Shown: positions 13,616 through 37,200 of the stretch, in pieces
Layout of the letters: each line of letters opens with the position of its first letter
Numbering within the stretch: position 1 is the first letter of the stretch
DNA from: a bacterium
GTDB taxonomy: Bacteria > Oederibacteriota > CAKKQC01
Direction: 5' to 3'
Assembly (NCBI GenBank): GCA_919901855.1
Contig: CAKKQC010000028.1
Location: forward strand, 117,598 to 181,597
DNA: 64,000 nt
Translations under genes and position numbers: made by a program
The notes under the pieces: model-generated
Database searches by the model: none
What the model was told of the DNA's origin: nothing
Seen by the model: only the letters and a program-made list of their open reading frames with translations

Positions 13616-13660
13616 ACGCCCGAAACGGGCGTCTTCGAGCTTCCGCGGACGCGGAAGCTC
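13616..13660. terminator. Two hairpins downstream of the signal peptidase gene
   Basis: Hairpin 1: 7-bp arms 13616-13622 and 13626-13632 with an AAA loop. Hairpin 2: perfect 10-bp arms 13637-13646 and 13651-13660 (GAGCTTCCGC / GCGGAAGCTC) with a GGAC loop. They lie between the end of the signal peptidase gene (13710) and the efflux promoter, so they probably insulate the two units. There is no T-tract. Hairpin 2 belongs to the GGA-loop group described in the findings. Confidence 0.55.
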
Positions 13661-13709
13661 TGCCTCCGGGTTGGCGGTCATGAACCTAGCTAACGGGCGG
13701 CGGGCGCTG

Positions 13710-14798
13710 TTATTTGAGGGGGCCGGAACGGGCCCGCGGCCAGTAGAGCTTGTAGGCGCGGCCGTACACGGACTCGACGGGGACGAAGCCGAAGTACCGG
13801 GAGTCGCGGCTGTTGTCCCGGTTGTCGCCCATGACGAAGTAGCTGGCCTCGGGGACGGTCAGGGGCATGACATCGTCGCGGCCCGGCTGGCGGCGTCCGG
13901 CGTCCCGGTGGACCCCCCAGGGATCGGCGAGGGGCTTCCCATCGATGTAGACGCGCTGGCGGCGCACCTCGATCCGCTCGCCGGGGAGGCCGATCACGCG
14001 CTTGATGTAGTCCTCCTGCGGTCGGTCGGGGGGGCGGAATACGACGATGTCGCCGCGGGAGAAGGTCGTGGCGCGGCGGGCCCAGAGCCGGTCGCCCTCG
14101 CGGAGCGTGGGCTCCATCGAGGCGGACGGGATCCGGAAGGACCGGATAAGGTGGTCCTTGAGCCAGGCTTCCCACGGGAGTTCGGCGGTGAGCCAGACCG
14201 CCACGGCGAGCCCCAGCCAGGGCAGGGCCAACTCCGGCCGGCGCAGGGGCTGGCCGGCCCGCCGGAGGCCCAGCCGCCAAGCGTGGGATGCGGCGGCGGC
14301 GGAGAGCCCCGCCGAGGCGGCGAAGGCGGCCCAGCCGGGCCAGTGCAGGGCCCAGGCCGGCCAGGCGGCCACCGGGGGCTCCTCGAGGGCGAGTACGGCC
14401 ATCAGGAGGAGGCCGGGCAGGCCGCAGACGAGCGCCAGCGGGGGCCAGAGCCACCAGCGGCGGGCCCACAGGTACGCATGCCCGAGCCCGGGGAAGAAGA
14501 TCGAGAGGGCGAGGGCGCCTTCCGGCGACTTCAGCTCGGGGGCGCCGCCTGCTCTACGCGCCACCCAGTAGGCGTCCACCCAGCTCCCGAGTTCGGTGGC
14601 CCCGAGCGCGATGAGCCAGAATCCCGCCTCCGCGACGTTCGAGCGGACGGGGTCCAGGATCCACCACAGGAAGCCCGCGAGCGAGCCCGCGCACAGGAGG
14701 ACCCAGATCAGGCCCCGGAGGCGCCGGCCGGCGGCGATCTGGCCGAGCCCCGGGAGCAGAAGGGAGAGCGCGGCCGCGAGCCAGGGGTGGACGATCAC
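13710..14798 (-). CDS. lepB: Signal peptidase I with polytopic N-terminal extension
   Basis: A 362-residue leader peptidase. The catalytic C-terminal part has FRIPSASMEPTL with the Ser nucleophile, YIKRVIGLPGE with the general-base Lys, and VMGDNRDNSRDSR. The first ~190 residues are unusual: two related membrane blocks beginning LSLLLPGLGQIAAGRRLRG and LSIFFPGLGHAYLWARRW, each a pair of helices, like the small TM2/DUF5683-type membrane domain, then further helices before the usual anchor. GTG start at 14798 overlaps the phosphatase stop (GTGA). A second, conventional signal peptidase lies at 23856. The duplicated N-terminal block could recruit a special substrate class. Confidence 0.9.
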   Translation of the reverse strand: MIVHPWLAAALSLLLPGLGQIAAGRRLRGLIWVLLCAGSLAGFLWWILDPVRSNVAEAGFWLIALGATELGSWVDAYWVARRAGGAPELKSPEGALALSIFFPGLGHAYLWARRWWLWPPLALVCGLPGLLLMAVLALEEPPVAAWPAWALHWPGWAAFAASAGLSAAAASHAWRLGLRRAGQPLRRPELALPWLGLAVAVWLTAELPWEAWLKDHLIRSFRIPSASMEPTLREGDRLWARRATTFSRGDIVVFRPPDRPQEDYIKRVIGLPGERIEVRRQRVYIDGKPLADPWGVHRDAGRRQPGRDDVMPLTVPEASYFVMGDNRDNSRDSRYFGFVPVESVYGRAYKLYWPRARSGPLK

Positions 14799-15646
14799 GC
14801 GGCCCTCTGCCTCCGGCCCGACAGCCCGGGGAGCTTGAGCAGGGCCGGCAGGCTGGCGGCCACGAAGTCGGGGCGGATGCCCCGGCGCCTGATGTCCGCG
14901 CGGCGGTCCACGCCGGTGAGGACGAGGGCCGTGCGGGCGCCTATCGCGCGGCCCGCCGCGACGTCGATGTCCAGCCGGTCCCCGACCACGAGGGTGTCTC
15001 CCGGAGACACCCGTTGCTCACGGAGGATCAGGCGGAAGAGCAGGGGCGACGGCTTGCCGATCAGGACCGGCGTGACTCCCGAGGCGTACTCGAGGAGCTT
15101 GACGAGCGATCCGGAGCCAGGCAGGAGCATGCCGAGCGCCGGGTAGCTCGAGTCGAAGTTGCCCGCGATCAGGCGCGCGCCGCGCTGGAGCGCGAGATGC
15201 GCCGCGCACAGGCTCCAGTAGGTGAGCTCATGGTCCATCGCGACGACGACGGCGCGGATAGGTGGAGGGGACGTCCGGAACCGTTTCCACGCCGCGCGCG
15301 TGTGGAGCCAGACCGGCCGGTATCCGGCGGCGCGGAGTTCCCCCGACAGTCCCTTCCCGCCGAAGACTAATACCCGTGACCCGCGCGGAAGGTGTCGAGC
15401 GACCCAGAGGACGCAGCCGTGGGACACGTTCATGATCTCGGCGGTGCCGCACGGGATGCCCAGGCGCGTGAGGTGGAGACCGAACTCGCGCCGCGAGCGC
15501 GTGGCCCCGTTCGTCACGAAGAGCACGCGCACGCCCCGCGCGCGCAGGGTCCGGATGGCGTCCGCGACGCCGGGCAGGAGGACGTTCTCGAGGTAGACGA
15601 CGCCGTCGAGATCGAGAATGATCGCGCGAATCGGCCGGTTGGACAT
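14795..15646 (-). CDS. HAD-IIA family sugar-phosphatase (NagD/phosphoglycolate phosphatase-like)
   Basis: A 283-residue HAD hydrolase: motif I ILDLDGVVY with the nucleophilic Asp, motif II FVTNGATRS, the type IIA cap between motifs II and III, the GKPSPLLF lysine motif, and VVGDRLDIDVAAGRAIGA at motif IV. The ATG at 15646 fits family length; a longer reading from an ATG at 15712 would add 22 residues that look unlike coding sequence and contain a perfect hairpin. The stop overlaps the signal peptidase start. It is the first gene after the structured leader at 15647-15840, so it may be controlled at RNA level. Substrate unknown; small phosphorylated metabolites such as phosphoglycolate are usual. 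Confidence 0.88.
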   Translation of the reverse strand: MSNRPIRAIILDLDGVVYLENVLLPGVADAIRTLRARGVRVLFVTNGATRSRREFGLHLTRLGIPCGTAEIMNVSHGCVLWVARHLPRGSRVLVFGGKGLSGELRAAGYRPVWLHTRAAWKRFRTSPPPIRAVVVAMDHELTYWSLCAAHLALQRGARLIAGNFDSSYPALGMLLPGSGSLVKLLEYASGVTPVLIGKPSPLLFRLILREQRVSPGDTLVVGDRLDIDVAAGRAIGARTALVLTGVDRRADIRRRGIRPDFVAASLPALLKLPGLSGRRQRAA

Positions 15647-15840
15647 GGCACTTAAGGGCCGTTGCGTTCCCGCAACGGCCCTTGGAAGCAGCGGATGAAT
15701 TGTTGACTTCATGAACGGCTTCTAGTGTCGCACAGCGGGAGCGCGCGCGTTGGCGGGAAGGGGTGCCGTGAATTAATTCAGGCGGTGCCCCTTTTCCCCG
15801 TTCGGGGAAATCGCTCTCTAGGCTTTGGGGACCGCCTGTA
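15647..15840 (-). ncRNA. Structured leader or small RNA upstream of the HAD phosphatase gene
   Basis: Read leftward from the predicted transcription start. An outer stem pairs 15831-15838 with 15779-15786 (CAGGCGGT/ACCGCCTG) and continues with four C:G pairs. Inside is a 7-bp stem with a GAAC tetraloop (15793-15810) and a 16-nt purine-rich asymmetric loop. An AT-rich AATTAATT segment follows. The leader ends in a perfect 13-bp hairpin (15654-15666 with 15671-15683, loop GGAA on the sense strand) 7 nt before the ATG. No Shine-Dalgarno sequence is visible. It could be a riboswitch with a start-proximal expression hairpin, or a free small RNA ended by that hairpin. It matches no class I can name. 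Confidence 0.55.
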
Positions 15841-15846
15841 ATTGGT

Positions 15847-15875
15847 GGTATACGCGCGCGGGTGACGCTTGTCAA
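15847..15875 (-). promoter_or_regulatory. Promoter of the structured leader / HAD-lepB unit
   Basis: Read leftward: TTGACA at 15875-15870, a 17-nt spacer, and TATACC at 15852-15847. The -35 is fully consensus and the -10 matches four of six. Transcription would start near 15840, at the foot of the outer stem of the leader. Confidence 0.75.
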
Positions 15876-15880
15876 CTCGT

Positions 15881-15930
15881 CATGTCCCGAAATCCGAGGT
15901 CGGGTCGGCCCCGGTTGGGATCGGGACATG
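15881..15930. promoter_or_regulatory. Inverted repeat just upstream of the leader promoter
   Basis: Perfect 10-bp arms CATGTCCCGA (15881-15890) and TCGGGACATG (15921-15930) separated by 30 bp. The inner edge lies 5 bp from the -35 hexamer at 15870-15875. It may be a paired binding site for an activator or repressor, or a long stem at the end of the transcript arriving from the right. Confidence 0.45.
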
Positions 15931-15966
15931 CCGTTCGCCGATCCACCGGAACCGGAGGGTCCGGGC

Positions 15967-15985
15967 GGGGGCCTCTTCGGCCCCC
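15967..15985 (-). terminator. Probable terminator hairpin after the GT-C/TPR gene
   Basis: Perfect 7-bp GC stem, GGGGGCC (15967-15973) and GGCCCCC (15979-15985), with a 5-nt loop, about 200 bp past the stop of the leftward gene ending at 16180. There is no T-tract, as for other hairpins in this window. The rest of 15931-16179 shows no gene. Confidence 0.5.
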
Positions 15986-16179
15986 AGCGGACTGCCGGAT
16001 CGGCGCCGTGGAGTGTCAGAGTCTGTCACCGCATCGGGCGGGGGTCACGTGGAGCGCCACCATCCGTGGATGTTCGAGTGCTGATTAGCCGGGGCGCCCG
16101 CACTTCTTCGCCTTCATGGTTCATCACTTCCCGCGCGCCGTTTTACGCATCAATCGTGCCGACACCCCGCTTGTGGTGG

Positions 16180-18690
16180 TCAGTGGACGTTCACATAATC
16201 CCTGGTTCGCCTGTATTCGACCTCGGCCCACCAGACGAGGCCCCGGTCGTGGAGGCGCCAGCCGAGGACCGCGAGATCGAGCCAGGCAAAGGGGTCGTCG
16301 GAGAAGCCGCGGGCGGCCGGCGCTAGGAGCCGGGTGGCTTCCGCCACCCGGCCTTCGGCCGCCGCCAGGGCGGCGCGGAGGCGCAGGTCCGCGGGGGAGC
16401 CCGGCGCGAGCGCGTAGAGGCGGCGGGCGCAACTCATCGCGGCGGCGATGTTCCCCTGGGCGGCGCGGGCCATCCCGAGCGCCATCCAGAGCTCGGCGTT
16501 CCCCGGGAAGGTCGGAGCCACGTCGGCGAGGAGCGCGGCCGCCTCCTCGGCCCGGCGCCGGCTGACGAGCACCAGCCCAAGCCGGACGATCTCGGATTCG
16601 AATCCCGGGGTCAGGCGGTGGGGGCCCCGGAGGGGCCGGCGCGATAGCGCGAAGAGGCCGAGGTGGCGCCCATGCGCGGCGAGCGGGATTGCATGGCGGT
16701 CCCAGAACGCGATCCAGCGGTCGACGGTGCCGGGTGGGCCCCAGTCCCAGAACCGCCAGTAGTCGAGGTAGACCTCGCCCAGCCAGCGGTTCACGAGCAC
16801 GTGCGTGAGGCCGAGCTGGCGGAACCGCTTCGCGATCTCGCCGACGTCGCGGGCTTCGCGCGTGATCGCGACCGGCAGGGGACGTCCCTGGAGGGGCGTG
16901 AAAACGCACCACCGGGGGATGCCGTACGCGCCGCCGAACCCGCCGATGAAGAGCAGGCGGGCGTCCCGGGGGGTGAGCTCCGCGGCCGCGCGGTCGGGCC
17001 AGGTCGCCGGAAACGGGTAGTACACGCGCGGGTAGCGCATCCGATCGAGATAGCGGCCCGCGGGCTCGGTGCCCAGCACGACTGGCAGGGGCTCGTCGTA
17101 CCCGTGCCACGTGCCCGGGACGAACTCGGCCGCCTGCCAGCACAGGCCGAGCGTGACCGCCGCGAGGGCCCCGGCGCGGAGGCGGGACCCCGGGGGGAGG
17201 CGGCCGTCCGCCATGGCGGCGGCCGTCAGACGGCTGGCGCCGCGGGCGATTACCGCGGCGGCCAACGGGAGAGCGGGCAGGAGGAACCGGATGCCGGCGG
17301 CGCCCAGGGCGTTCGGGAGCGCGAAGGCGACGAGGGCCACGGCCTCGCGCAGCCGGCACGCGACCAGCAGCAGCGGGAGGCCGAGCGCGAGGAGGATGCC
17401 GGTCGAGCCGTCCGCGCCGGCGCCCAGCCCGCGGACGGAGAGGAGCCAGGGGAGCGCGGGCAGGCCGGCCGCGAGGTCGCGGAGCGGGGAGACGCCCTGC
17501 CAGCCCTCCTTCCGGAACCGCCACGCGAGCTGCTCGTCCCACCCGGCGTCGCCGAAGAGCCGCCACAGGAACGGGTGCACGGGGTTGCCGAACAGGCAGG
17601 CGTTGCGCGCGAGCCAGGGACCGGCCACGGCGAGGGCCGCGACCGCGGCGGGGAGGACGGCGCGGGCCGGGAGGAGGGGCACGACGAGGCACGCGAGGAG
17701 GAGGCCCGTGTACTTGCACGCCCCCGCTATCCCGACAATGACGCCGGCGAGGACGCCATGGCCGCGGCGCGCGGCGAGCACGGCGGCGGCGCCGCATGCG
17801 ACCAGGAAAAGATCGCTGAACGCGCGGCCCGCGAAGGTCCAGACGATGGGGACGGTGGCGGCCGCCAGGAGCGTGAACCGTAGGGGCCCGGGGCCGGAGT
17901 CCTCGAGGAGGCGGGCGAGGCCGGCCAGCGCGAGCCAGCCCGCGGCCCAGTGGAGCCACTTGACCCCCCCGCCGACTCCGGCGGCCTCCCCGGCGGCGTA
18001 GAGGAGGGTATCCATATGAGGAAAGGCGGCGAAGACGTTCCCGGGCTGGAGCACGATCCCGTGGTGGCGCAGGTACCAGCGGGCGAGCCCGAGATGCACT
18101 ACCAGCTCGTCCGAGACGTGCGGGGGGGTGAGTCCCGAGACCAGCGAGGCGGCCTGGACGAGGGAGGCGGCCACCAACCCGACGATCAGCCAGGCGGCGG
18201 GCCGAGGGGAGACGAGTGCGCGGACGGATGTCAGGATGGGAAGCGCGCTCCGCCAGCGGCGCAGGGCCAGGAGGGCCGGGGGGAGGAGGAGGAGCGCGTA
18301 CAGCCCGGGGCCCCAGAGGCGGCACAGGCCGGCCCCGAGGGCGGCCGTCGCGATACCCCCCAGCCCGAGGAGGGGGCTGAATACCCGCGAATCGGCTTCG
18401 CCGACACGCGCCGCCCACCCGAGGACCCGGGCGCCGGTCCATGCAGCTGCGAGGAGGAAGACGAACAGAAAGATCGCAGCTGAGGCGGCGCGGCCGGCGG
18501 CAGCCGGGAGTGTTCTCCAGTCGAGCGAGACGAGCGGGGCGCCGATCAGTTCGAGATACGGCGCGAACCGGAGCGGGTGGTTCGTACCGTAGTTGAGCAC
18601 GACCAGGAGCGCCCAGCCGGCCCCGAGGGCCGCGAGCAGGCTGGATCGGGTCGGGGAGCCGGGCGGCGTCAGCGTGGCGGCACGATCCAC
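16180..18690 (-). CDS. GT-C fold membrane protein (PMT/ArnT/RgtA-like) with C-terminal TPRs
   Basis: An 836-residue multi-spanning protein resembling glycosyltransferase family 39/RgtA-type enzymes that use lipid-phosphate sugar donors. The first periplasmic loop has LTPPHVSDELVVHL, the acidic DE pair expected of the GT-C active site; GRAFSDLFL, CKYTGLLLA and GPWLARNACLFGNPVHPF follow. About a dozen helices lead into a soluble region (about 480-690) and then TPR-like helical repeats (about 700-820). It is a paralogue of the proteins at 19474 and 55965. GTG start at 18690 overlaps the end of iolB by 22 nt; codons further upstream in this frame are only shadow of iolB. A 10-bp GGAA-loop palindrome lies in its TPR region (16329-16352). 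Confidence 0.8.
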   Translation of the reverse strand: MDRAATLTPPGSPTRSSLLAALGAGWALLVVLNYGTNHPLRFAPYLELIGAPLVSLDWRTLPAAAGRAASAAIFLFVFLLAAAWTGARVLGWAARVGEADSRVFSPLLGLGGIATAALGAGLCRLWGPGLYALLLLPPALLALRRWRSALPILTSVRALVSPRPAAWLIVGLVAASLVQAASLVSGLTPPHVSDELVVHLGLARWYLRHHGIVLQPGNVFAAFPHMDTLLYAAGEAAGVGGGVKWLHWAAGWLALAGLARLLEDSGPGPLRFTLLAAATVPIVWTFAGRAFSDLFLVACGAAAVLAARRGHGVLAGVIVGIAGACKYTGLLLACLVVPLLPARAVLPAAVAALAVAGPWLARNACLFGNPVHPFLWRLFGDAGWDEQLAWRFRKEGWQGVSPLRDLAAGLPALPWLLSVRGLGAGADGSTGILLALGLPLLLVACRLREAVALVAFALPNALGAAGIRFLLPALPLAAAVIARGASRLTAAAMADGRLPPGSRLRAGALAAVTLGLCWQAAEFVPGTWHGYDEPLPVVLGTEPAGRYLDRMRYPRVYYPFPATWPDRAAAELTPRDARLLFIGGFGGAYGIPRWCVFTPLQGRPLPVAITREARDVGEIAKRFRQLGLTHVLVNRWLGEVYLDYWRFWDWGPPGTVDRWIAFWDRHAIPLAAHGRHLGLFALSRRPLRGPHRLTPGFESEIVRLGLVLVSRRRAEEAAALLADVAPTFPGNAELWMALGMARAAQGNIAAAMSCARRLYALAPGSPADLRLRAALAAAEGRVAEATRLLAPAARGFSDDPFAWLDLAVLGWRLHDRGLVWWAEVEYRRTRDYVNVH

Positions 18691-19463
18691 GCGTGTCGCG
18701 GATCGTCGCGCGGCACGAGCTTGCGGTCGCGGAACGCGGCCAGCACCCAGAAGTAGTAGAGCTCGTAGCCGGGGGCCGCCACGACGGGGTGGAAGCCGCG
18801 CGGCAGCGTGACGACGTCGCCGTTCTCGACTACGAACACCTGGTCGTACCCGTCGGCGGTGTAGACGCGCTGGAGGCCGAAGCCCTGAGCCGGGCGGATC
18901 CGGTAATGGTAGAGCTCCTCGAGCTGGGCCTCCTCGGGCGGGGAATCGATGTCGTGCTTGTGCGGCGGGGCCGACGACCAGTTGCCCGGCGGGTTGAAGG
19001 TCTCGCCGAAGATCAGGCACGTGGCCTCGACGTTGTCGACGCCGACATCGTGGACGCGGCGGAACCAGTTGTCGCGCCCGACCTCGCGGACCGTGACGTC
19101 GCGCGGCCGCACGACCTGCGGGGGGCCGCCCACGGAGGCGGGGGCCTTGACGAGCGCGGCGTGCACGTTGGTGGTCGCATCGATCACGTACCGCGTGTTC
19201 GGGGGGAGGTAGACGGCCGACGCCTTGCCGTCGAACACGTCCGCGCGTTCGCCGACCTTGCCGAACTCGAAGCCCTCCCCGCGCACGTCGACCGTGCCGC
19301 CGAAGATGTGGAAGATGGCCTCCTCCTGTTTGGTCCCGTCGCGCAGGGATTCCCCGGCGCGCAGGTTCACGAGTCCGAAGTCGATGAGCAGGAGGTCCTG
19401 GCGCTTGCGCTTCACGATCCAGCGCAGGCCGTCGCCCTCCTTCGGTTTCAGGTGCGTGGCCAT
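18669..19463 (-). CDS. iolB: 5-deoxy-glucuronate isomerase
   Basis: A 264-residue bicupin of the IolB/KduI type. IolB converts 5-deoxy-D-glucuronate to 5-dehydro-2-deoxy-D-gluconate in myo-inositol breakdown. The second cupin has the metal-site pattern PPHKHD...EELYHYRI (His, His, Glu, His), and the C-terminal LPRGFHPVVAAPGYELYYFWVL is characteristic of IolB. Length matches the family. No other inositol gene is in the window; it sits between two GT-C membrane protein genes, 10 nt after one and overlapping the other by 22 nt, so it may serve an envelope-sugar task instead. Ribosome-binding site GGTGAGGA precedes the ATG. Confidence 0.88.
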   Translation of the reverse strand: MATHLKPKEGDGLRWIVKRKRQDLLLIDFGLVNLRAGESLRDGTKQEEAIFHIFGGTVDVRGEGFEFGKVGERADVFDGKASAVYLPPNTRYVIDATTNVHAALVKAPASVGGPPQVVRPRDVTVREVGRDNWFRRVHDVGVDNVEATCLIFGETFNPPGNWSSAPPHKHDIDSPPEEAQLEELYHYRIRPAQGFGLQRVYTADGYDQVFVVENGDVVTLPRGFHPVVAAPGYELYYFWVLAAFRDRKLVPRDDPRHAWIVPPR

Positions 19464-19473
19464 GTCGTCATCC

Positions 19474-22011
19474 TCACCAGCGCTCCGTCCGGAATTCCTT
19501 GATGTTGTCCGAGATCCGCTTGTACCAGGCGGCTTCCTCGCGCTTATCGAGGAGACCGCAGAGCATGGAGAGGTCCAGCCAGGCCTGCGCGTCGCGGGCG
19601 TCCCGCCGGCAGATCTCGCGCACCAGGACGGCGGCCTCGGCGTACTGCGTGCGCGCGAGGCAGACGGCCGCCCGGCCCCGCAGGAGCTCGACCGAGCCGG
19701 GCGCCATCCTCGCGAGGTGCGCGCACAGGGTCGCGGCGTCGAACACCTTGTCCTGACGGGCCGCCAGCTCGACCGCGCGCAGCGCGAAGACGGGGTCCGT
19801 GGGGAAGATCGAGATCATGGTCTGGAGCAGGGGGAGGGCTTCCGTGAAGGCCCGCCGCCGGATCATGTATCCGAGCAGCTTGCCCACCTCGTCCTCGAGG
19901 CCCGGGGTGAGTCGGTGCGGCTGGACCACGGGCCGGCGCGCGATACGGTAGCACTCGGAGACCTTGCCGTACCGCCAGACGGACACCGCGTACCGGTCCC
20001 AGAACTGGATCCAGCGCGAGGCCTCGTACCCCGGGGCCCAGTCCCACATCCGCCAGAAGTCGTAGAAGATCTCGTTCTCCCAGCGGTTCACGATCACGTG
20101 CGTGATGCCATACTGCCGGAACTTGACGCGGATGCGGGAGGCATCGGCGGCTTCCCGCGAGACCGGGATCGGAAGCGGGCGGCTCTCGAGCGCGGTGAAA
20201 AGTACGGGCCGCGGGATCCAGTAGGCGCCGCCGTAGCCGCCGAGGAAGAGGATCCGGGCGTCCGGCGGGACGTTCTCCGCCGCGGCCTTCAGCATGCGGG
20301 AGTAGCTCGGCGGGTAGTAGATCGCGGGGGTGAGCCGCCGGTCGAGGTAGCGCGCGATCGAGACCTGCCGGAATATGACCGGGAGGGGGTGGTCGAACTC
20401 GCCCCAGAACACGCGGAAGTAGCCGGCGGCCTGGACCCAGAGCAGGAACGCGAATCCGGCTGCGACCACCCGCGCCGCGCGCGGGCCCGGGGCCGCCCCG
20501 GACAGCCGGCGGGCCGCGATCGCGAGGGCGAACGGGATCAGGGGAAAGAGGAATCGCAGGCCCGGGACGCTGAAGGCGACGGGGATGAAGAAGGCGGCGA
20601 GGACGGCGAGCTCGCGGCCCGTGGCGCCCGCGAGCGCGAGCCCGACCACGGGACCGATCAGCGGACCCGGGATGCTGTCCGGGCCGCCGCCCGAGCCGAG
20701 AACGGGCATGTTCCAGAGCTGGACCGGCAGGGCGGCAAGCCGCTGCCAAATCGTGAAGTCGCCCTGCATCTGTTCCTTGGCCAGCCGCCACGCCAGGTGG
20801 GCGTCCCAGTCGAGCCCACCGAGGAGGTGCGCCCCGTACGGGAAAACGGGGTTGCCGGTGACGATCCAGCTCTTGAGGAACCACGGGGACACGACGGCGG
20901 TGGCGGCCACGGAGGCGGCGACCATGCGGCGGGGCGTGAGGCCGGACCACAGCAGGACCCAGAGGAAGAGGCCGTTGTATTTCATTCCCGCGGCGATGCC
21001 GACGAAGGCGCCCGCGACCCAGGCCCAGCCAACGCCTCCGCGGCCCGGCCGGGAAGAAGCCCGCCGGACGGCGACCAGCGCACCCGTGGCGTACGCGAGC
21101 AGGAATCCGTCGTTGAACCCGCGGCCCGCGAATCCCCACAGGGTCGGGATCGTCAGGAACAGGAGCACGGCGGCTCGGCGGAGCGCGGGCTTCGCGTCGT
21201 GGAGGAGGCACCAGACGCCCGCGGCGGCGAGCAGGCCGCCGACCCAGTGGATCCATTTGACGCCGAAGACGAGCCCGAAGGCGAGCGGCGGGCCGTAGAG
21301 CATGCTCGCGACCTGGGGGTTGAACTCGAAGAAATTATGCGGCCACGCGACGGCCCGCCCCATTTGCAGGTACCACTGCGGGTAGCCGAGGTGGTAGATG
21401 CCCTCGTCGGAGATGTGGCAGGGCGTGAACCCCGACGCGAGGGCGCCGATCTGGCAGAGGACGGCGGCCCCGATCCCCCAGCGGACCCACGGGGAGACGG
21501 GGGCGGACGGTCGCGAGGGGAGGGCGACGCGCCCGCGGCGCCACGCGCGGAGGGCGAGCACGGCCCCGAGACCCAACAGCACGGCGTGCGACCCCGCCGA
21601 GTAGAACCCGAGCGTCCCCGCCCCGTACGACGCGAAGGCGAAGAGGCCCAGGCCCAGCAGGAGCGCGATCCAGGTCCGCTCGGCGCGCGTCCGCCAGGGC
21701 AGGTCCAGCCACGCCGCCGCAGCCTCGCCGAACCCGAAGGCGCCCGCGACCTCGAAGACCAGGCAGGCACCGGCAAGGAGGAGGTCGGGGACCGGGGCGA
21801 GCAGGCCACGCCAGTCAAGTTCCAACAGGGGGACGAGCGTGATGGAGAGGGTGAGATGCGAGAACGGGTCGGGCGGATGCATGCGGGCGTACGCGACGAA
21901 GGCCATGACAGCCCAGAGCGCGGCCACGACGGAGACGGGAGAGAGCGGCCGGGCCGGCGGCGCGGCGGGGCCACGCGAGCCGGACAAGGGGACGCCGGGC
22001 CGACGCTTCAT
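19474..22011 (-). CDS. GT-C fold membrane protein with C-terminal TPRs (paralogue 2)
   Basis: An 845-residue paralogue of the proteins at 16180 and 55965. It has the same layout: helices, the first-loop motif FTPCHISDEGIYHLGYPQW with the DE pair, GRGFNDGFLLAYATGAL, MKYNGLFLW, SWIVTGNPVFPYG, then a soluble segment and TPR-like repeats. ATG at 22011 starts 31 bp from lepA, which runs the other way. It probably transfers a polyprenyl-phosphate-linked sugar to an envelope acceptor, by family analogy; donor and acceptor are unknown. First gene of the leftward unit that includes iolB. Confidence 0.8.
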   Translation of the reverse strand: MKRRPGVPLSGSRGPAAPPARPLSPVSVVAALWAVMAFVAYARMHPPDPFSHLTLSITLVPLLELDWRGLLAPVPDLLLAGACLVFEVAGAFGFGEAAAAWLDLPWRTRAERTWIALLLGLGLFAFASYGAGTLGFYSAGSHAVLLGLGAVLALRAWRRGRVALPSRPSAPVSPWVRWGIGAAVLCQIGALASGFTPCHISDEGIYHLGYPQWYLQMGRAVAWPHNFFEFNPQVASMLYGPPLAFGLVFGVKWIHWVGGLLAAAGVWCLLHDAKPALRRAAVLLFLTIPTLWGFAGRGFNDGFLLAYATGALVAVRRASSRPGRGGVGWAWVAGAFVGIAAGMKYNGLFLWVLLWSGLTPRRMVAASVAATAVVSPWFLKSWIVTGNPVFPYGAHLLGGLDWDAHLAWRLAKEQMQGDFTIWQRLAALPVQLWNMPVLGSGGGPDSIPGPLIGPVVGLALAGATGRELAVLAAFFIPVAFSVPGLRFLFPLIPFALAIAARRLSGAAPGPRAARVVAAGFAFLLWVQAAGYFRVFWGEFDHPLPVIFRQVSIARYLDRRLTPAIYYPPSYSRMLKAAAENVPPDARILFLGGYGGAYWIPRPVLFTALESRPLPIPVSREAADASRIRVKFRQYGITHVIVNRWENEIFYDFWRMWDWAPGYEASRWIQFWDRYAVSVWRYGKVSECYRIARRPVVQPHRLTPGLEDEVGKLLGYMIRRRAFTEALPLLQTMISIFPTDPVFALRAVELAARQDKVFDAATLCAHLARMAPGSVELLRGRAAVCLARTQYAEAAVLVREICRRDARDAQAWLDLSMLCGLLDKREEAAWYKRISDNIKEFRTERW

Positions 22012-22042
22012 GATGGGTCATCTTACCGCGTACTATATATAG
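22012..22042. promoter_or_regulatory. Compact divergent promoter region, GT-C gene / lepA
   Basis: Only 31 bp separate the two start codons. Rightward: TACTAT (22031-22036) followed by 6 nt and the lepA ATG. Leftward: TAAGAT (22026-22021) followed by 8 nt to the ATG at 22011. Neither side has a ribosome-binding site or a clear -35. Both fit leaderless starts, and the two -10 regions are almost adjacent, so the promoters should compete. Confidence 0.55.
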
Positions 22043-24597: not shown

Positions 24598-24675
24598 GGA
24601 ACCGGTGTCGCCGCGGCCTGCCATGCCCGGGACACCGGTTCCACCCGGGGTTCACGGGATGATCCCGTGAACCCC
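24598..24675. repeat. Tandem perfect palindromes between lepB and hemW
   Basis: Two large inverted repeats sit back to back. The first has 12-bp arms at 24598-24609 and 24631-24642 (GGAACCGGTGTC / GACACCGGTTCC) around a 21-nt loop. The second has 14-bp arms at 24647-24660 and 24662-24675 around a single G, and its right arm contains the GTG start of hemW. In RNA the second would hide the start codon; together they could terminate the lepA-lepB message. Confidence 0.7.
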
Positions 24676-28753: not shown

Positions 28754-29734
28754 ATGACGTCAGTGACCATGAAGCAGCTGCTCGAAGCCGGCATGCACTT
28801 CGGACATCAGGTGCACCGCTGGCACCCGAAGATGCGGAAGTACATCTTCGGCACCCGCAACGGCATCCACATCATCGACCTGCAGAAGACGATCCGCCTC
28901 CTGAAGGAGGCGTACACCGAGGTGAAGGAGACGGCCGCCGAGGGCGGCCTGGTCCTCTTCATCGGCACCAAGAAGCAGGCCCAGACCGTCGTGCTCGAGG
29001 AGACGGCCCGGTGCAAGCAGTTCTCGTGCACCAACCGCTGGGTCGGCGGGACGCTGACGAACTTCACGACGATCCGCAAGAACCTCGCCAAGATGCGCGA
29101 GTACGAGCAGCTCGACGCCGAGGGCCTGCTGGCCCAGCTCCCGCGCAAGGAAGAGGCCTCGCACCGCCGCCGGTGGGAGAAGCTGCGGGAGGCGTTCTCG
29201 GGCATCCAGGACCTGCCGAAGGTCCCGGAGATGCTCTTCATCATCGACCTCAAGAAGGAGCACATCGCGCTCCAGGAGGCGCGCCGTCTCGGAATCCGGG
29301 TCGTCGCGATCGTGGACACGAACTGCAACCCGGACGAGGTTGACCTCCCGATCCCGGGCAACGACGACGCGATCCGGTCCATCAAGCTCGTGACGAGCTT
29401 CATGGCCGACGCCGTGATCGAGGGCCAGGCCGAGTGGGCCGCCAAGGGCGGCGTGACCGCGGGCGCCGAGGTCGATCTGCAGCCGGCCACCGAGGCCGAG
29501 CTCGCCGAGCAGGTCGCGGCCGCCGCGCACGCGCTCAAGATCGAGTCCGAGATGGAGGGCGAGGAGGAAGACCTCAAGCTCTTCGAGCAGGCGATCAAGG
29601 GCGAGTTCCCGCTGCCCGGCGCCAAGGAAGAGGTGGTGGTGGTGGAAGCCGCTCCGCCCGCGCCGACGACCGGGGTTTCGACGTCCGGGGAAACCCTGCC
29701 ACCTGCTCCTGCAGGTGACGGGAAGGGCGCGTAA
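28754..29734 (+). CDS. rpsB: 30S ribosomal protein S2
   Basis: A 326-residue S2. The core is canonical: [50 protein letters not shown], and [23 protein letters not shown]2 usually ends near residue 240-260; here an acidic, Ala/Pro-rich tail of about 70 residues follows. Its last third ([18 protein letters not shown]) is encoded by two adjacent hairpins (29673-29696 and 29700-29717), so the tail may have grown by insertion of palindromic DNA. ATG at 28754 with ribosome-binding site AAGGAG. EF-Ts follows 5 nt later. Confidence 0.97.
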
Positions 29735-29739
29735 CGCCG

Positions 29740-30345: not shown

Positions 30346-31057
30346 AGGGACCCGCTACACGCGGGTCGTCCTCAAGCTCTCGGGCGAGTCGCTCGCCGGG
30401 GGCGAGCACGGGTACGGGCTGTCGGCCGCCGTGCTCGAGCGGATCGCGGGCGAGATCGCGCAGGTCCACCGGGCGGGCGTCGACGTCGGGATCGTTATCG
30501 GCGGCGGGAACATCTTCCGCGGCGCCTCGGGCGGCACGATCGACCGCGTGGCCGCCGACTACATGGGCATGCTCGCCACCGTCATCAACTCCGTGGCCAT
30601 GCAGGACGCGATCGAGAAGATGGACGTGCCCGTGCGCGTCCAGTCCGCGATCGAGATGGCGAAGGTCGCGGAGCCGTTCATCCGGCGCCGGGCGATGCGG
30701 CACCTCGAGAAGCACCGCGTCGTGATCTTCGCGGGCGGCACCGGCAACCCGTACTTTTCCACCGACACGGCCGCGGCGCTGCGCGCGACCGAGATCGGCG
30801 CCCAGGTCGTGCTCAAGGCGACCCGCGTTGACGGGGTGTACGACCGGGACCCCGAGAAGGACAAGAAGGCGAAGCGGTACGACCGGCTCACGTTCGAGGA
30901 GGCGATCAGCCGGCGCCTCAAGGTCATGGATGCGACGGCGTTCACCATGTGCGCGGAACAACACATCCCGATCGTGGTCTTCAACCTGAACGTCGCCGGA
31001 AACATCGTCCGGGCCGCGAAGGGGGAGCCGATCGGCACGCTCGTGACGGGAGGCTGA
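30326..31057 (+). CDS. pyrH: UMP kinase
   Basis: A 243-residue hexameric amino-acid-kinase-fold enzyme that phosphorylates UMP to UDP. Motifs: [22 protein letters not shown], the UMP-site segment [19 protein letters not shown], and [16 protein letters not shown]. The ATG lies inside the 3' end of tsf (20-nt overlap), and the stop is 2 nt before frr. Standard position in the rpsB-tsf-pyrH-frr cluster. Confidence 0.97.
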
Positions 31058-31059
31058 CG

Positions 31060-31623
31060 ATGGCGGGAGGGGACGAGATCCTCAAGGACGGCGAGGTGAA
31101 GATGAAGAAGACCTTCGAGGTCCTGCTGAACGACCTCTCGGGCCTGCGGACGGGCCGGGCGAGCCCGGGCCTCGTCGAGCACATGAAGGTCGACTACTAC
31201 GGCCAGTCGATGCCGCTCAAGCAGCTCGCGAACATCGGCGTGCCCGACGCGAAGACGATCGAGATCCGGCCGTGGGACAAGAACGCCATCCAGCCCATCG
31301 AAAAGGCCTTCGCCACCTCGGACCTCAAGCTCGCGCCCCAGCGGCAGGGCGACGTCATCCGGCTCAACATCCCGCCGCTCACCCAGGACCGCCGGATGGA
31401 GCTCATCAAGGTCGCGAAGAAGACGGCCGAAGAGGGCCGCGTCTCGATCCGGAACGTGCGGCAGGAGACCAACAACAAACTCAAGGCCGCCAAGGACGGC
31501 AAGACGATCTCGGAGGACGAGCTGAAGCGGTTTAACCAGCAGGTCCAGAAGCTGACGGACCAGTTCATCGCCAGGATCGACGAGACCCTTGCCAAGAAGG
31601 AAAGCGAAATCTCGACGGTCTGA
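31060..31623 (+). CDS. frr: Ribosome recycling factor
   Basis: A 187-residue RRF, which splits post-termination ribosomes with EF-G. The family signatures are present: FEVLLNDLSGLRTGRASPGLVEHMKVDYYG, ANIGVPDAKTIEIRPWD, IRLNIPPLTQDRRMELIKVAKK and VSIRNVRQETNNKLK. Length is typical. ATG at 31060, 2 nt after pyrH. uppS follows. Confidence 0.97.
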   Translation: MAGGDEILKDGEVKMKKTFEVLLNDLSGLRTGRASPGLVEHMKVDYYGQSMPLKQLANIGVPDAKTIEIRPWDKNAIQPIEKAFATSDLKLAPQRQGDVIRLNIPPLTQDRRMELIKVAKKTAEEGRVSIRNVRQETNNKLKAAKDGKTISEDELKRFNQQVQKLTDQFIARIDETLAKKESEISTV

Positions 31624-31624
31624 G

Positions 31625-32440
31625 ATGACTGGTCGGGCTGAAGTGTCCGACCGTTCGGGGTCCGGGCAGGAGCCCGGACCCCGCCCGTCTGACGTGCGCC
31701 TCCCGCGGCATGTCGCGATTATCATGGACGGGAACGGGCGCTGGGCGAAGGCCCGCCGCCTGCCCCGCATCGTCGGCCACCGGGCCGGGGTCAACACCGT
31801 CCGCGAGATCACGACCGCCTGCGCCGAGCTCGGCATCCCGGCCCTGACCCTCTACGCCTTCTCCGCCGACAACTGGAAGCGCCCGTCGCGCGAGGTCGGG
31901 GCCCTCATGGGCATCCTGGTCCGGTTCCTCAGGCTCGAGCTACCGACCATGCGCCGCCACCAGGTGCGCCTGCGGGCGATCGGGCACACGGAGGCCCTGC
32001 CCCCCGCGGCCCGGGCCGCCCTGCGCCGGGTCACGGCGGAAACCGCCCGTCACCGGGGCATGATTCTCACGCTGGCGCTGAACTACAGCGCCCGGCAGGA
32101 GATCCTGGACGGGGCGCGGAAGCTGGCCGGCGATCTCCACAAGCGGCGTGTAACGGGCCGGCATGGTTCCGCCGGAGGCGGAACCATGGGGCGAAGCCGA
32201 CTGCACCGCGACGACTTCCGGCGATACCTGGCCACGGCGCATCTTCCCGACCCGGACCTCCTGATCCGGACGAGCGGCGAGATGCGGCTCTCGGACTTCC
32301 TGCTCTGGCAGGCCGCGTACGCGGAGCTGTGGTTCACGCCCGTCCTGTGGCCGGACTTCCGGCGCAAGCACCTGATGGCCGCCCTGCGTGCCTTCGCCCG
32401 GCGCCAGCGCCGGTACGGAGGGGTGGAGGACGTTGCATGA
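31625..32440 (+). CDS. uppS: Isoprenyl (undecaprenyl) diphosphate synthase with palindrome-encoded segments
   Basis: A cis-prenyltransferase making the lipid carrier for wall and envelope sugars. HVAIIMDGNGRWAKAR carries the catalytic Asp; GVNTVREITTACAELG, TLYAFSADNWKRP, LIRTSGEMRLSDFLLWQAAYAELWFTPVLWPDF are canonical. Two oddities are visible. The first ~24 residues are encoded by hairpins (31631-31652; 31657-31682), and a GTG at 31694 (248 residues) is an alternative start that would leave them non-coding. Around residues 180-190, between the KLAGDLHKRR helix and the DDFRRYL helix, a Gly/Arg-rich insert of about 13 residues is encoded by a perfect 12-bp palindrome (32162-32188). Overlaps cdsA by four bases (ATGA). 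Confidence 0.93.
   Translation: MTGRAEVSDRSGSGQEPGPRPSDVRLPRHVAIIMDGNGRWAKARRLPRIVGHRAGVNTVREITTACAELGIPALTLYAFSADNWKRPSREVGALMGILVRFLRLELPTMRRHQVRLRAIGHTEALPPAARAALRRVTAETARHRGMILTLALNYSARQEILDGARKLAGDLHKRRVTGRHGSAGGGTMGRSRLHRDDFRRYLATAHLPDPDLLIRTSGEMRLSDFLLWQAAYAELWFTPVLWPDFRRKHLMAALRAFARRQRRYGGVEDVA
31657..31682. repeat. 11-bp perfect hairpin at the start of uppS (AGGA loop)
   Basis: GGGGTCCGGGC (31657-31667), loop AGGA, GCCCGGACCCC (31672-31682). A smaller 6-bp pair, GGTCGG (31631-31636) with CCGACC (31647-31652), lies just before it. Both fall either in the first codons of uppS or, if translation starts at GTG 31694, in the frr-uppS spacer. Confidence 0.8.
32162..32188. repeat. 12-bp perfect hairpin inside uppS coding sequence (GGA loop)
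   Basis: CATGGTTCCGCC (32162-32173), loop GGA, GGCGGAACCATG (32177-32188). It is in frame and encodes Gly/Ser/Ala-rich residues between two conserved helices of the enzyme, where other family members have a shorter link. It looks like an inserted palindromic element tolerated in a surface loop. Confidence 0.8.
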
Positions 32441-33288
32441 GCGATCTCCCGCGCCGCGCGGTCGCGGCCGTCGTCGCGATACCGCTCCTCGGGTGGTTCC
32501 TGTTCTCCCGCACGCCGTATCCCTTCGGGGCCGTGATCGTGGTCGCGAGCCTGGCCGGCCTGCGCGAGGTCTTCGCCATGCTCCGCAAGCTCAAGTTCCG
32601 GCCGTTCGAGCCCGTCGGGTACGCGGCCGCCCTCGCTTGCCACGCCGCGGCGCTCTGGGAGTGGAACCTCCCGGCCTCGCTCTCGATCCTGGCCGCGCCC
32701 GTCTTCCTCCTCACCGTGATCCTGCTCGCCCTCCTCCTCGCGATGCTGTGCCGGGGGATGGAGAAGGACAACGTGCCGTCGGTGGCGGTCACGCTCTTCG
32801 CCGCCCTTTACGCGGGCTGGCTCGCGAGTTTCGTGACCCGGCTCCGCGTCCTACCCGAGGGCGCGCAGTGGGTATTCCTGCTCTTCGTCCTGACGTGGAC
32901 GTACGACACCGCCGCGTATTTCTGGGGCGTCAACTTCGGCGGCCCCAAGCTCTGGCCGTCGGTCTCGCCGAAGAAGACCTGGGCGGGCTTGTGGGGCGGG
33001 ATCGGCACCACGCTTGCGATCCTCGTGGCTCTGCGGCACCTGCTCCCGGCCGGGACCGGGCCGCACCTCTTCCCGTATCCGCTCGCAATCCGGTCGCTTT
33101 GGTGGCTCGTGCCCGTCGGGTGCGTGATGGCCCAGCTCGGCGACCTCGCGGAGTCCATGCTCAAGCGCGCGGCGGGCGTCAAGGACTCGGGGGCGTTCCT
33201 CCCGGGCCACGGCGGCCTCCTCGACAAACTCGACAGCTTCCTCTTCACCGGCCCGCTCCTCTATTTCCTCGCCGTAGCCGTCCTCTAG
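32437..33288 (+). CDS. cdsA: Phosphatidate cytidylyltransferase
   Basis: A 283-residue membrane enzyme making CDP-diacylglycerol, the precursor of acidic phospholipids. About eight hydrophobic helices; the family signature LKRAAGVKDSGAFLPGHGGLLDKLDSF is complete, with the earlier SPKKTWAGLWGG motif. ATG overlaps the uppS stop (ATGA). Ends the rpsB-to-cdsA run; a double hairpin follows at once. Confidence 0.95.
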   Translation: MSDLPRRAVAAVVAIPLLGWFLFSRTPYPFGAVIVVASLAGLREVFAMLRKLKFRPFEPVGYAAALACHAAALWEWNLPASLSILAAPVFLLTVILLALLLAMLCRGMEKDNVPSVAVTLFAALYAGWLASFVTRLRVLPEGAQWVFLLFVLTWTYDTAAYFWGVNFGGPKLWPSVSPKKTWAGLWGGIGTTLAILVALRHLLPAGTGPHLFPYPLAIRSLWWLVPVGCVMAQLGDLAESMLKRAAGVKDSGAFLPGHGGLLDKLDSFLFTGPLLYFLAVAVL

Positions 33289-33340
33289 GCTCGAGGACGA
33301 GCCTTCGTCGAAGTTGGCGGGATTCTCAATAACTTCGACG
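33288..33340. terminator. Bidirectional terminator between cdsA and the aldo/keto reductase gene
   Basis: A short hairpin, GGCTCG (33288-33293) - AGGA - CGAGCC (33298-33303), is followed by 10-bp arms CGTCGAAGTT (33306-33315) and AACTTCGACG (33331-33340) with a 15-nt loop. It separates two convergent genes. No long T-tract on either side. Confidence 0.65.
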
Positions 33341-33354
33341 CGTCGCCCGAGCTT

Positions 33355-34176
33355 CTAGAAGAACAACCCCTTCTTCTTGTGGATGAAGTCGCCGAGGCGG
33401 CGGGCGCGATCCATCTCGGCGGGCGAGAGCGGCCCCAGGTCCAGCGCCGTGATGGCGTGGGTGAGCTGGTCGGCATTCGCGGGACCGGTCATGCAGACGT
33501 CCACCTGCGGGTTCGAGAGCACGAATCGGTAGCAGTCGGCGGCCGTCATCGGCGGTTCGCCAGACGGCATCTTCCCTGGCCTCAAGAGTTGGCTCCAGCA
33601 CGTGGCGGTGTAGGCGATGATGCCCGGCGGATTGGCCGACGGGATGAGGGGGAAGATCTCCTGCTCGGCACCGCGGTGGACGGCATTGTACCGGAGCATC
33701 TGGGCGCCGAAGGGCGAGTCCGCCTTCGCGGCCAGCGTGCCGTGGAACGGGCGATCATGGCCCGATACCGCGAGGTGGCGGACCTTGCCCTCCTGCTGGA
33801 GTTTGAGGCATGCGTCCACGAGCCGCGGGGACGGGTACCGGTTGACCCAGCCCAGCAGCAGAATCTCGACGTGGTCGAGGCTCAAAGCCCGGAGCCCCTT
33901 CTCGACCGACCGGCGCACCCACCATCCGGGATGGTCGTACGACTGGAGCATGACGACGAGCCGGGCACGGTCGGTCTTCGCGATATTCCGGATCGCCTCG
34001 GCCATCGCGGCCCGGCGTAGGGTGCCCCAGTAGAAGAAGTTGATGCCATGTTCGTGGAACGCCTTCTCCAGCGGGGCCGCCGGGATGCCGTAGCCGGACG
34101 AGATGCCGAGCCGGGAGACCATGAGCCCCGTGCGTCCGAGGGCCCGGGGCTGGCGGAAGCCGTTATCTGCTGCCAT
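33355..34176 (-). CDS. Aldo/keto reductase-like protein with incomplete catalytic tetrad
   Basis: A 273-residue TIM-barrel protein. The fold is recognised from LGRTGLMVSRLGISSGYG, SLDHVEILLLGWVN, GKVRHLAVSGHDRPF (the His position) and NPQVDVCMTGPANADQL. The usual Asp and Tyr of GINxFDTAxxYG read GINFFYWGTLRR here, and the catalytic Lys segment reads RLVVMLQSY, so Asp and Lys are not at their normal places. It may have another chemistry or be a non-enzymatic homologue. A TAGAAT -10 lies 8 nt before the ATG (34190-34185), consistent with a leaderless mRNA. Confidence 0.78.
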   Translation of the reverse strand: MAADNGFRQPRALGRTGLMVSRLGISSGYGIPAAPLEKAFHEHGINFFYWGTLRRAAMAEAIRNIAKTDRARLVVMLQSYDHPGWWVRRSVEKGLRALSLDHVEILLLGWVNRYPSPRLVDACLKLQQEGKVRHLAVSGHDRPFHGTLAAKADSPFGAQMLRYNAVHRGAEQEIFPLIPSANPPGIIAYTATCWSQLLRPGKMPSGEPPMTAADCYRFVLSNPQVDVCMTGPANADQLTHAITALDLGPLSPAEMDRARRLGDFIHKKKGLFF

Positions 34177-34210
34177 ATTCGCCGATTCTACCCGAAGGTC
34201 CTGGTTGCGT

Positions 34211-37200
34211 TCAGCGGAGGCGGATGGCGAAGACGCCGGCGGCGGGGGTGAAGGAGAAGACGCCCTTGGCGCGGTGGAGGGAAACCTTGCCGAGCGGGGC
34301 GCCGTCCTCGGCGGCGGCGGTCGCCAGCGTGGGCTCCGGGAGCTTCCACGGGAGCGACCGCCACCCGAGCGAGATCTTCGCCGTCGTTTCGGGGAGCGGG
34401 GTCACGGTGACCACGTCGTCGACGACCGTGACCCGGCAGCCGCCGGCGGCGGCGACGCCGCGGACCGCGACCTTGGCGCCGCGGCCGTTCACGTATAGGC
34501 CCGAGGGGCCGTACGACCACTCGACGATCCCCTCGTCCTTGCGCTCGATCGCGGCCTCAACGACGCCTCTCTTGGTGGGGATTCGGGAGTAAAACCCGAA
34601 AGGCGGGAGAGTGTGGTCCTTGACCATCCAGGCGGTCTTGCCCCGGTTCACCCAGACCTCGCCGCCACCCTCCCACTTCACGTGCTGGCGGTGGAGGTCC
34701 TTCCCCGCGAACTCGACCCGGTCCATGCGCGCGAGTCCAAGCGCTCGCGCGACGTCATGCGTGAGCCAGTATTTCCGGACGACGTCGGGGGAGAAGGCGT
34801 TCGAGACCATGGCCGGGTGCCCGTCCAGGATCTCGGTGGCGATGTAGTCGTCGGAGTAGATGCCGTGGGCCTTGGCGTCGAGTCCGCCCTCGTACCGGCC
34901 CGGGTACCCGGCGCCGTGGAGGATGAACCGGTCATGGTGGGCGGCGTCGTGCCACGGCACCCGCTCGGCGTCCGCGCACCGGATATCCCACACGCACCAC
35001 GACATGTCGCCCGGCAGCGGCGGCCCGACCCGGAGATGGTTCGTCTGGGCGCCGTCGAGCCAGCCGATCAGGGCGTCGTGTCCGCTCTCCGAGATCTGGG
35101 GGGCGTTGCCGCCGAGCGTGGTCCGGATCCACGCGAACGCCTCCCCCCAGACCGTGCGCGTGAACGACCGGTCGAGGAACCGGCCGTCCCGGCTCCAGCA
35201 GTCGTACGGCCCGATCGAGGACCAGACGTCGATGAAGTAGGCGTCGGGCGCGAGGCCGGCCTTGATGAGGCGCACGTTGCGCTGGAGCGGGGCGAGGTCG
35301 GCGTCCGGCCGGGACCGGTACGACTGCGCGTTCGCGTGCCAGGAGTTGAGCCAGGCCTTCACGGGCGCGCCGCCCGCGTCGAACGCGATCTGGTCGTACG
35401 AGAAGCCCTCGGAGTCGGGGTAGAAGTCGATGTAGTTGTCGTGCGGGGCGAAGAGGACGCCGTGGTCGCGGCAGGACTTCGCGAGCGCGGCCAGCTCGGC
35501 CAGCGTGCCGTACTCCCCGCGCGGCGGCCAGATGTCCGGGAGCCGGTAGTCGTAGCCGTGCCGCTGCCAGACGTGCCAGACGACGACGGCGTCGGTCAGC
35601 CCGTACCGGAACGCGCGCTCGAGCGCCTTCATCGACTCCGCGTACCGGCCGCCCCAGAGGTCGAAGACGAACCGGCCCGCGAGGGTCTGGACGCCGGCCG
35701 CGGCCTTGAGGCCGTTGGTGTCGCGCCACGCCCTGATCCCGTCCCAGACCGTCCGGCAGGGGAGGAAGACCTGGGTCTGGGTGCCCGGCCCCCGGAGCGT
35801 GTACTGCCGCGCGGCAGGGTCCACGGTCAGGGAATCCGGGACCGCGTCCGTGGCCTGGACGATCGAGACGCCGGGGAAGTCGAACCCGACGAACGAGGTC
35901 GAGAGCCGGTGGCCGTCGAACCCGAGGTTGAAGCTCCCGGGCTTCTCGATCACGTTCCCGTCGCCGGCGAAGACGCGGGCGGCGGTCGCGCTCCACGGAC
36001 CGGCGGCGACCTCGTCGAGCCGGACCACCATCCAGGGCCGGTCGGCGGGGGCATTCTCGAGGCGGAACGAGGCACGCAGGGCGGGGCCCCAGACCGAGAG
36101 CTCGCCGACGAGGTCGAAGCTCCCGGCCCAGCTCTCGAACCGGTGGCGGACCCGGACACCGTCCGGGACGGGCTCGTTCACGACCTCGCGCAGTACGGCC
36201 GCGGACCTCGTGTCGTCGAGCGCGTCGCCGAGGACGCGGACCCGGAATCCGTGGAAGAGCAGTCGCCGGTCGCCGTTCCGGAACTCGACCGCGGCATCGA
36301 GGAGCCCGCGGCTCCCGGGCCGGACTCCGACCGTCCACGCGTCCCTGCCCTTGCCGATCCTGCCGAGGGTCTTCTGCGGTGAGCCGGCCTTCGGCGGGAA
36401 CACCGCCGGCTTCGGGGGCTTTCCTGCGACCAGCGTCGGCTCGGCCCAGAAGGACTGGTCGCACGTCGTGTCGTTCTTCGGCCCCGGGTGCGACTCGAGC
36501 TGGAGCCGGACCGCCTGGCCCGCGAACTTCGACAGGTCGGCCTCGTGCGGCTCCCAGCGCTTGGCGAGGGTGTGATGCTCGAAGACGACTTCCCCCTCCT
36601 CGCCCGCCGCGATGCCGGAGGCATCGCGGAGCGACGCTCCTGCGTCGCCCGGTCCGTCGACCGGGGCATCCAGCGGGGCCACGCGGACCCGGAAGGTGAC
36701 TCCGTCGCTCGGCGGCTCGCCCTGGTCGTGATGGTGGTCGCGGATCGCATTGGCGAAGGTGAGCTTGAGCGGCGTCGTCGCCGGAAGCCGGACCGGGTAC
36801 TCGGTCAGGATCGTCCCGGCCCGGTCGAGCCAGGGCGGATGCATCGTGATCGCTTCCCGCCATCCGCCGCGGTCGGTCCCGTCGGAGAAACCGGCCCAAG
36901 CCCGCGTGACCGCGTCCTCGCCCGACCAGCCGACCGGGAGCGTTCGGGCGGGATCGCCGAAGACGCGGAGGATGACCCGGCGGACCGGGAGCCGCCAGAG
37001 GGCGAGCGCGGAATCGGGCGCGACCGCGACGGGGGTCCACGGGATCGATGGCGTGGCGCGCGGCGGGTCCGGGAGCGCGCACTCGACGAGGAGGACGGGA
37101 TGCAACGACGCGCCTCCGGCCTCGATGAAGGCGTGGACCGGATACCAGGCGTTGTAGGTGCCGACCGGGGCGGTTACGACGAACGCGGCCTTGGCCAGTC

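What the first reader, a model, noticed from the sequence alone, without database searches (positions are those of the whole stretch)
13637..36648. A family of long perfect hairpins sharing GGA-containing 3-4-nt loops
Seen: tight-loop hairpins with perfect arms of at least 10 bp at 13637-13660 (loop GGAC), 15654-15683 (GGAA on the minus strand), 16329-16352 (GGAA, minus), 31657-31682 (AGGA), 32162-32188 (GGA) and 36607-36629 (GGA). Arms differ completely from case to case, yet each loop contains GGA on one strand. The only other tight-loop hairpin of this size I found (24647-24675) has a 1-nt loop. Shorter members include 29700-29717, 33288-33303, 36631-36648 and 63780-63795. Different stems with a common loop point to selection on a structure rather than copies of one sequence. 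CsrA/RsmE proteins bind GGA in hairpin loops, but both orientations and in-gene positions occur, so a DNA-level element or template-switch product is equally possible.
Basis: partly seen in the sequence, partly recalled or inferred. Interest (0 to 1): 0.8.

Follow-up and report, generated by a model that had tools for sequence, protein, structure and literature searches.

The report
Dispersed double-hairpin repeat with GGAC loop
Some of these GGA-loop hairpins are copies of a short palindromic DNA repeat, found at about 75 places in this bacterium's genome and nearly absent from its sampled relatives, that sits just after genes or inside proteins, almost always in the same reading frame; it is not a CsrA regulatory site.

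Summary
The hairpins are real, and the GGA-loop excess holds genome-wide: 38 of 79 perfect stems of at least 10 bp with 4-nt loops contain GGA, against about 10% for short chance stems. The excess is driven mainly by one dispersed repeat, not by many unrelated stems. The unit is about 45-50 nt: a first hairpin (6-9 bp, loop often AGGA or AAGA), a 0-4 nt linker, and a 28-nt second hairpin, consensus CGGAGTTTCGGC-GGAC-GCCGAAACTCCG. Loop and closing pair are near-constant, while stems change by paired Watson-Crick substitutions.
A covariance model finds about 75 loci in this genome, none in its only same-family relative, and three weak hits in 43 other genomes of the phylum. Intergenic copies often directly follow stop codons. 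In-gene copies lie on either strand; 24 of 26 internal ones use one frame, encoding GVSADAETP/GVSASAETP. Paralogues lacking the element indicate that it was gained.
In the window, 13615-13660, 29671-29717 and (diverged) 32162-32188 belong; 15654 is another small family; 16329 lies in coding sequence; 31656 and 36607 stay unresolved. CsrA was not found.
Best reading: a REP/RPE-like palindromic repeat lacking GTAG/CGTC tags and an identified transposase.

The parts
13615..13633 (+). first hairpin of a double-hairpin element: GACGCCCG-AAA-CGGGCGTC, between a tetR-family gene (12926-13576, -) and a signal peptidase gene (13710-14798, -)
13635..13662 (+). second hairpin of that element, GAGCTTCCGC-GGAC-GCGGAAGCTC
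   Evidence: model R1 match 37.3 bits, E 2.8e-9 over the window
29671..29698 (-). second hairpin of an element inside rpsB (ribosomal protein S2, 28754-29734 +), antisense; encodes GVSTSGETL in the C-terminal tail, outside the S2 domain
   Evidence: model R1 match 34.8 bits, E 1.9e-8; Pfam Ribosomal_S2 at aa 9-224; the relative's S2 tail lacks it
29700..29717 (-). first hairpin of that element, CACCTGC-AGGA-GCAGGTG
32162..32188 (+). diverged single second hairpin (3-nt GGA loop) inside uppS (about 31691-32440 +); overlaps a 12-residue insertion relative to a solved UppS
   Evidence: model R1 match 26.1 bits, E 1.2e-5; alignment to 7jli
31631..31683 (+). unresolved: GGTCGG/CCGACC (10-nt loop) then CGGGGTCCGGGC-AGGA-GCCCGGACCCCG, between frr and uppS; same layout as the family but not a significant model match
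   Evidence: sequence; model E 0.03; frr and uppS by Pfam
36607..36648 (-). unresolved: tandem hairpins GCGACGC-AGGA-GCGTCGC, T, CCGCGATGCC-TCC-GGCATCGCGG in gene 34211-37450 (-)
   Evidence: model E about 1.8
15654..15683 (-). hairpin of a different small repeat family (GTTGCG-N4-CGCAAC core with a conserved GGAAGCAGCGGAT-like tail); intergenic copies also at C7:13500 and C7:30899, and a shorter relative at C6:283166
16329..16352 (-). GGAA hairpin in coding sequence just after the predicted TPR region of gene 16180-18690 (-); probably a coding coincidence
   Evidence: model E 0.0098

Best explanation
The GGA-loop excess comes mainly from a dispersed, REP-like palindromic repeat: a 28-nt hairpin with loop GGAC, usually preceded by a shorter hairpin, present at about 75 places in this genome. 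Shown: the repeat unit, its near-restriction to this genome among those sampled, double-sided stem changes under a near-constant loop, location after stop codons or inside genes in one preferred frame, and paralogous sites without it. Inferred: it spreads as DNA, plausibly when a single strand folds and an HUH-type enzyme reads loop plus intact stem (as shown for Marinomonas and Stenotrophomonas REPs), and stem symmetry is renewed by replication template switching. Insertions survive after stop codons, or in protein linkers in the frame that encodes the small, polar peptide GVSADAETP; others are removed by selection.
For: Loop excess. Descriptor scan: 37 double hairpins with GGAN loops versus 1-7 for most other loop classes, 16 and 22 for two TCC classes, which partly read the same hairpins from the other strand. 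Twelve-bp stem: 10 of 12 pairs changed on both sides, 49 cells against 9.9 in shuffles. About 75 loci here, 0 in the same-family genome, 3 weak hits in 43 others. In-gene copies: 24 of 26 internal ones in one phase, 27 of 33 overall, on both strands, mostly without stops in the other frames. Copies checked lie outside Pfam domains. Sites without the element: the paralogue of C32:14569 lacks a 33-nt stretch, the paralogue of C12:28699 is 24 nt shorter, four copies of a dispersed repeat lack the one in C6:129219. REP/RPE precedent (PMC3733652, PMC10969869, PMC8266576).
Against: No mobilising enzyme was identified: the three Y1 transposase genes are not flanked by this hairpin, and two carry a different long inverted repeat. 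No target-site duplication or strain comparison was available. Members were partly chosen for good stems, which inflates pairing counts. Gene boundaries come from a home-made caller. Outside the detected family a GGA excess in 4-nt loops remains (19 of 56, 5.7 expected), so divergent members or another cause exist.
Confidence: 0.8

Rival explanations
1. RNA regulatory hairpins bound by CsrA/RsmE or another GGA-reading protein.
For: GGA in loops of stable hairpins, often in both hairpins of the unit; intergenic copies right after stop codons would be transcribed.
Against: No CsrA match in this genome or its family relative. About half of the in-gene copies are antisense. Few G-U pairs: 7 of 410 stem cells, against 3 A-C.
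Confidence: 0.04
2. Transcription terminators or mRNA 3'-end stabilisers: intergenic copies are selected as tandem hairpins after stop codons.
For: Several intergenic copies start within about 25 nt of a stop codon, some between convergent genes.
Against: No T-run follows; many copies lie inside genes in both orientations; published REPs have the same placement near gene 3' ends (PMC3733652). A secondary role is not excluded.
Confidence: 0.08
3. Local template-switch products: independent hairpins made in place by replication errors, not copies of one element.
For: Perfect stems with double-sided changes fit template switching (PMC8794818); host sequence beside C32:14569 has become a palindrome absent from its paralogue.
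Against: Shared arm sequence between distant loci (same top model score and identical 28-nt hairpin at C2, C6, C19 and C32), constant loop and two-hairpin layout require a common ancestor.
Confidence: 0.06

Closest known systems
REP sequences (GTAG and CGTC superfamilies; PMC3733652)
   Same: 20-40 nt palindromes with variable compensated stems, tens to hundreds per genome, near 3' ends of genes, sometimes paired, sometimes inside genes
   Different: no fixed GTAG or CGTC tag, a 12-bp stem with near-constant GGAC loop, no transposase gene flanked by the repeat
Rickettsia palindromic elements (RPE; PMC10969869)
   Same: palindromic repeats inserted in frame in unrelated genes, encoding a conserved peptide
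   Different: about 45-50 nt instead of about 150, GC-rich (70%) genome, many intergenic copies after stop codons; sequence relationship not tested
Mitochondrial double-hairpin elements and hairpin-forming repeats (PMC4478555, PMC2800124)
   Same: mobile-looking units built of hairpins
   Different: bacterial chromosome; resemblance taken from titles and abstracts only

Membership tests
GTAG/CGTC-tagged REP | terminal GTAG or CGTC tag next to the palindrome | tested here: not met
   no fixed tetranucleotide flanks the hairpin in the aligned copies; some intergenic copies have CGTC in the first hairpin's arm, in-gene ones mostly do not
GTAG/CGTC-tagged REP | small palindrome in many dispersed copies, mostly extragenic and near gene 3' ends | tested here: inconclusive
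   about 75 loci; intergenic copies near stop codons, but in-gene copies outnumber them in my gene calls
GTAG REP with RAYT | Y1 tyrosine transposase gene flanked by the same hairpin | tested here: not met
   three Y1_Tnp genes; no GGAC hairpin in their flanks, other long inverted repeats instead
Rickettsia palindromic element | in-frame insertion in unrelated genes with a conserved peptide | tested here: met
   24 of 26 internal in-gene copies in one phase, GVSADAETP-like
Rickettsia palindromic element | sequence relationship to RPE families | not tested
   no RPE sequence was fetched for comparison
CsrA/RsmE binding site | a csrA/rsmE gene in the genome | tested here: not met
   PF02599 no match, genome 93% complete

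The most novel reading that the evidence does not exclude
A palindromic mobile repeat whose mobility depends on a fixed GGAC loop and any intact stem, accepted in proteins in one reading frame on either strand, so that it donates nearly the same nine-residue linker wherever it lands, with a mobiliser outside the known REP transposases.
Probability: 0.25. Interest if true: 0.7.

Novelty: new variant of a known kind. Interest (0 to 1): 0.5.

Why it matters
In-frame palindromic insertions are best known from Rickettsia. A further case in a GC-rich, little-known bacterium, with a near-constant loop, freely varying compensated stems and one strongly preferred frame on both strands, would make two questions testable: what reads the loop to move such elements, and how often such repeats feed new linkers into proteins, here even into ribosomal protein S2.

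Tried and rejected
CsrA: searched and not found. Rfam: no match in the window or in two 20-kb pieces. Y1 transposases as mobiliser: present in 35 of 44 phylum genomes, so not specific, and not flanked by this hairpin. Viral contigs: two exact core matches, one in a VSPDGET coding context, judged chance. The window's six hairpins as one family: rejected by the model. Naming the organism: relatives come unnamed and the single genome-contig scan gave only distant partial matches; phylum not identified.

Full report
Observation. I rebuilt 2.62 Mb of the 4.68-Mb genome and listed perfect stems with tight loops. For stems of at least 10 bp with 4-nt loops, 38 of 79 loops contain GGA on one strand; for 5-7 bp stems the share is 10.2% (binomial P about 2e-17). 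Three-nt loops show no excess, five-nt loops a weak one.

What carries the excess. Listing the stems shows a recurring sequence, CGGAGTTTCGGC-GGAC-GCCGAAACTCCG, with variants whose two arms change together. Reading upstream of the loop showed a second, shorter hairpin in most copies, with loops such as AGGA, AAGA, CAGA or AAA. A descriptor scan for a hairpin followed within a few bases by a C[GGAN]G hairpin gave 37 places, against 1-7 for most other loop classes; two TCC classes gave 16 and 22, which is expected in part because they read the same hairpins from the other strand. A few of the 37 are probably not members.

Stem behaviour. In an alignment of 25 copies the 12-bp stem has 93.7% standard pairs; 10 of 12 pairs show changes on both sides, 49 such cells against 9.9 in shuffles, and sliding the partner by one base destroys it. 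The copies were selected for good stems, so the paired percentage is inflated; the number of different double-sided changes is less affected. On 41 model hits, stem positions 3-12 hold 381 Watson-Crick pairs, 7 G-T, 3 A-C and 19 others, so wobble pairs are rare, which fits DNA-level pairing or template-switch renewal better than selection on an RNA stem. That last step is inference.

Copy number and spread. A covariance model of the 28-nt hairpin finds 99 matches, about 75 distinct loci, in this genome at E up to 0.05. The same search in 45 genomes of the phylum finds none in the only same-family genome (83% complete, fragmented), two weak hits in one genome and one in another. The repeat is therefore essentially specific to this lineage as sampled.

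Where it sits. Gene calls are my own, supported by Pfam for the main examples. Intergenic copies often start within about 25 nt of the stop codon of the gene on the same strand, e.g. C7:107865, C12:108321, C1:313155, C1:131619. In-gene copies occur sense and antisense in about equal numbers. Of 26 internal ones, 24 have the same phase; the two exceptions are among the weakest model hits. Of seven near a gene's 3' end, three share the phase and four have another. The preferred frame encodes GVSADAETP (sense) or GVSASAETP (antisense); for most copies none of the three frames has a stop within the hairpin, so this is not a trivial effect. By hand, 24 of 26 at one in three has a probability of about 5e-10. 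Copies checked lie outside Pfam domains: between cellulase and CBM6, between GH42 and CBM9, before TPR or cytochrome c domains, in the S2 tail.

Sites without it. A nearby paralogue of the C32:14569 gene lacks a 33-nt stretch holding the hairpin; a paralogue of C12:28699 is 24 nt shorter there; and C6:129219 lies in one copy of a roughly 250-nt dispersed repeat whose four other copies lack it. In the same-family genome the S2 tail has no palindrome. These support gain of the element; exact ends remain unclear because neighbouring bases also changed.

The window. 13615-13660 is a complete unit (model E 2.8e-9). 32162-32188 is a diverged second hairpin inside uppS (E 1.2e-5) that overlaps a 12-residue insertion relative to solved UppS. 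15654-15683 belongs to another small intergenic family. 16329-16352 lies in coding sequence next to a TPR region. 31631-31683 and 36607-36648 have the two-hairpin layout but no significant model match; I leave them open.

Mechanism. REPs of Marinomonas and Stenotrophomonas are recognised as folded single strands by enzymes that need an intact stem and specific loop bases (PMC8266576); a fixed loop on freely changing but intact stems is what such recognition would leave. This is inference: no enzyme was tied to the repeat here. The three Y1 transposase genes of this genome are not flanked by the GGAC hairpin; two have long inverted repeats at both sides and the third, at a contig start, has one such end, and these resemble the separate 23-29 bp AT-rich hairpins scattered in the genome. 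CGTC-type REPs also lack a known transposase (PMC3733652). Template switching can renew stems (PMC8794818).

Known kinds. It works like a REP and, in genes, like a Rickettsia palindromic element, but it lacks the REP tags, and sequence relation to RPEs was not tested. I file it as a new variant of the palindromic-repeat kind. CsrA is rejected on present data.

Residual. Outside detected members, 19 of 56 four-nt loops still contain GGA against 5.7 expected. Some of these (C6:254791, C6:254841) are clearly units by layout; others with AGGA may be first hairpins or diverged copies. This is not settled.

Noticed in passing
G000 C21:55091, C30:18957, C6:268261, C6:278769, C7:113557, C12:148037, C18:14615, C22:138762; L155, L156, L157: Perfect 23-29 bp AT-rich hairpins, several starting (A)GGGGACGT or GGGACNNTCTTT, resemble the long inverted repeats around Y1 transposase genes (L156 and L157 both sides, L155 one end): they look like joined transposon ends without the gene.
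   Followed up: partly
G000 C1:265799/266132/266239, C29:11917/12286, C32:5999/6335, C16:7123, C6:244866: Hairpins of the type TTTGAGATCACA-AAT-TGTGATCTCAAA, often in pairs about 330 bp apart; the TCACA/TGTGA boxes look operator-like.
   Followed up: no
G000 C6:129100-129420, C2:1300-1600, C12:64402, C12:137295, C8:77366: A roughly 250-nt dispersed repeat with complementary ends (GAGGTCTCT ... AGAGACCTC), looks like a structured element; no Rfam match in the two pieces scanned.
   Followed up: partly
window 15654-15683; G000 C7:13500, C7:30899, C6:283166: Small intergenic hairpin family with GTTGCG-N4-CGCAAC core and a conserved GGAAGCAGCGGAT-like tail.
   Followed up: partly
G000 C22:124664: A copy lies at the end of carA and appears to supply the protein's C-terminal extension in a different frame.
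   Followed up: no
G000 C27:151583-151728: Three hairpins with similar stems (CGAAGCCG/CGGCTTCG type) inside one gene, next to a masked run of N.
   Followed up: no
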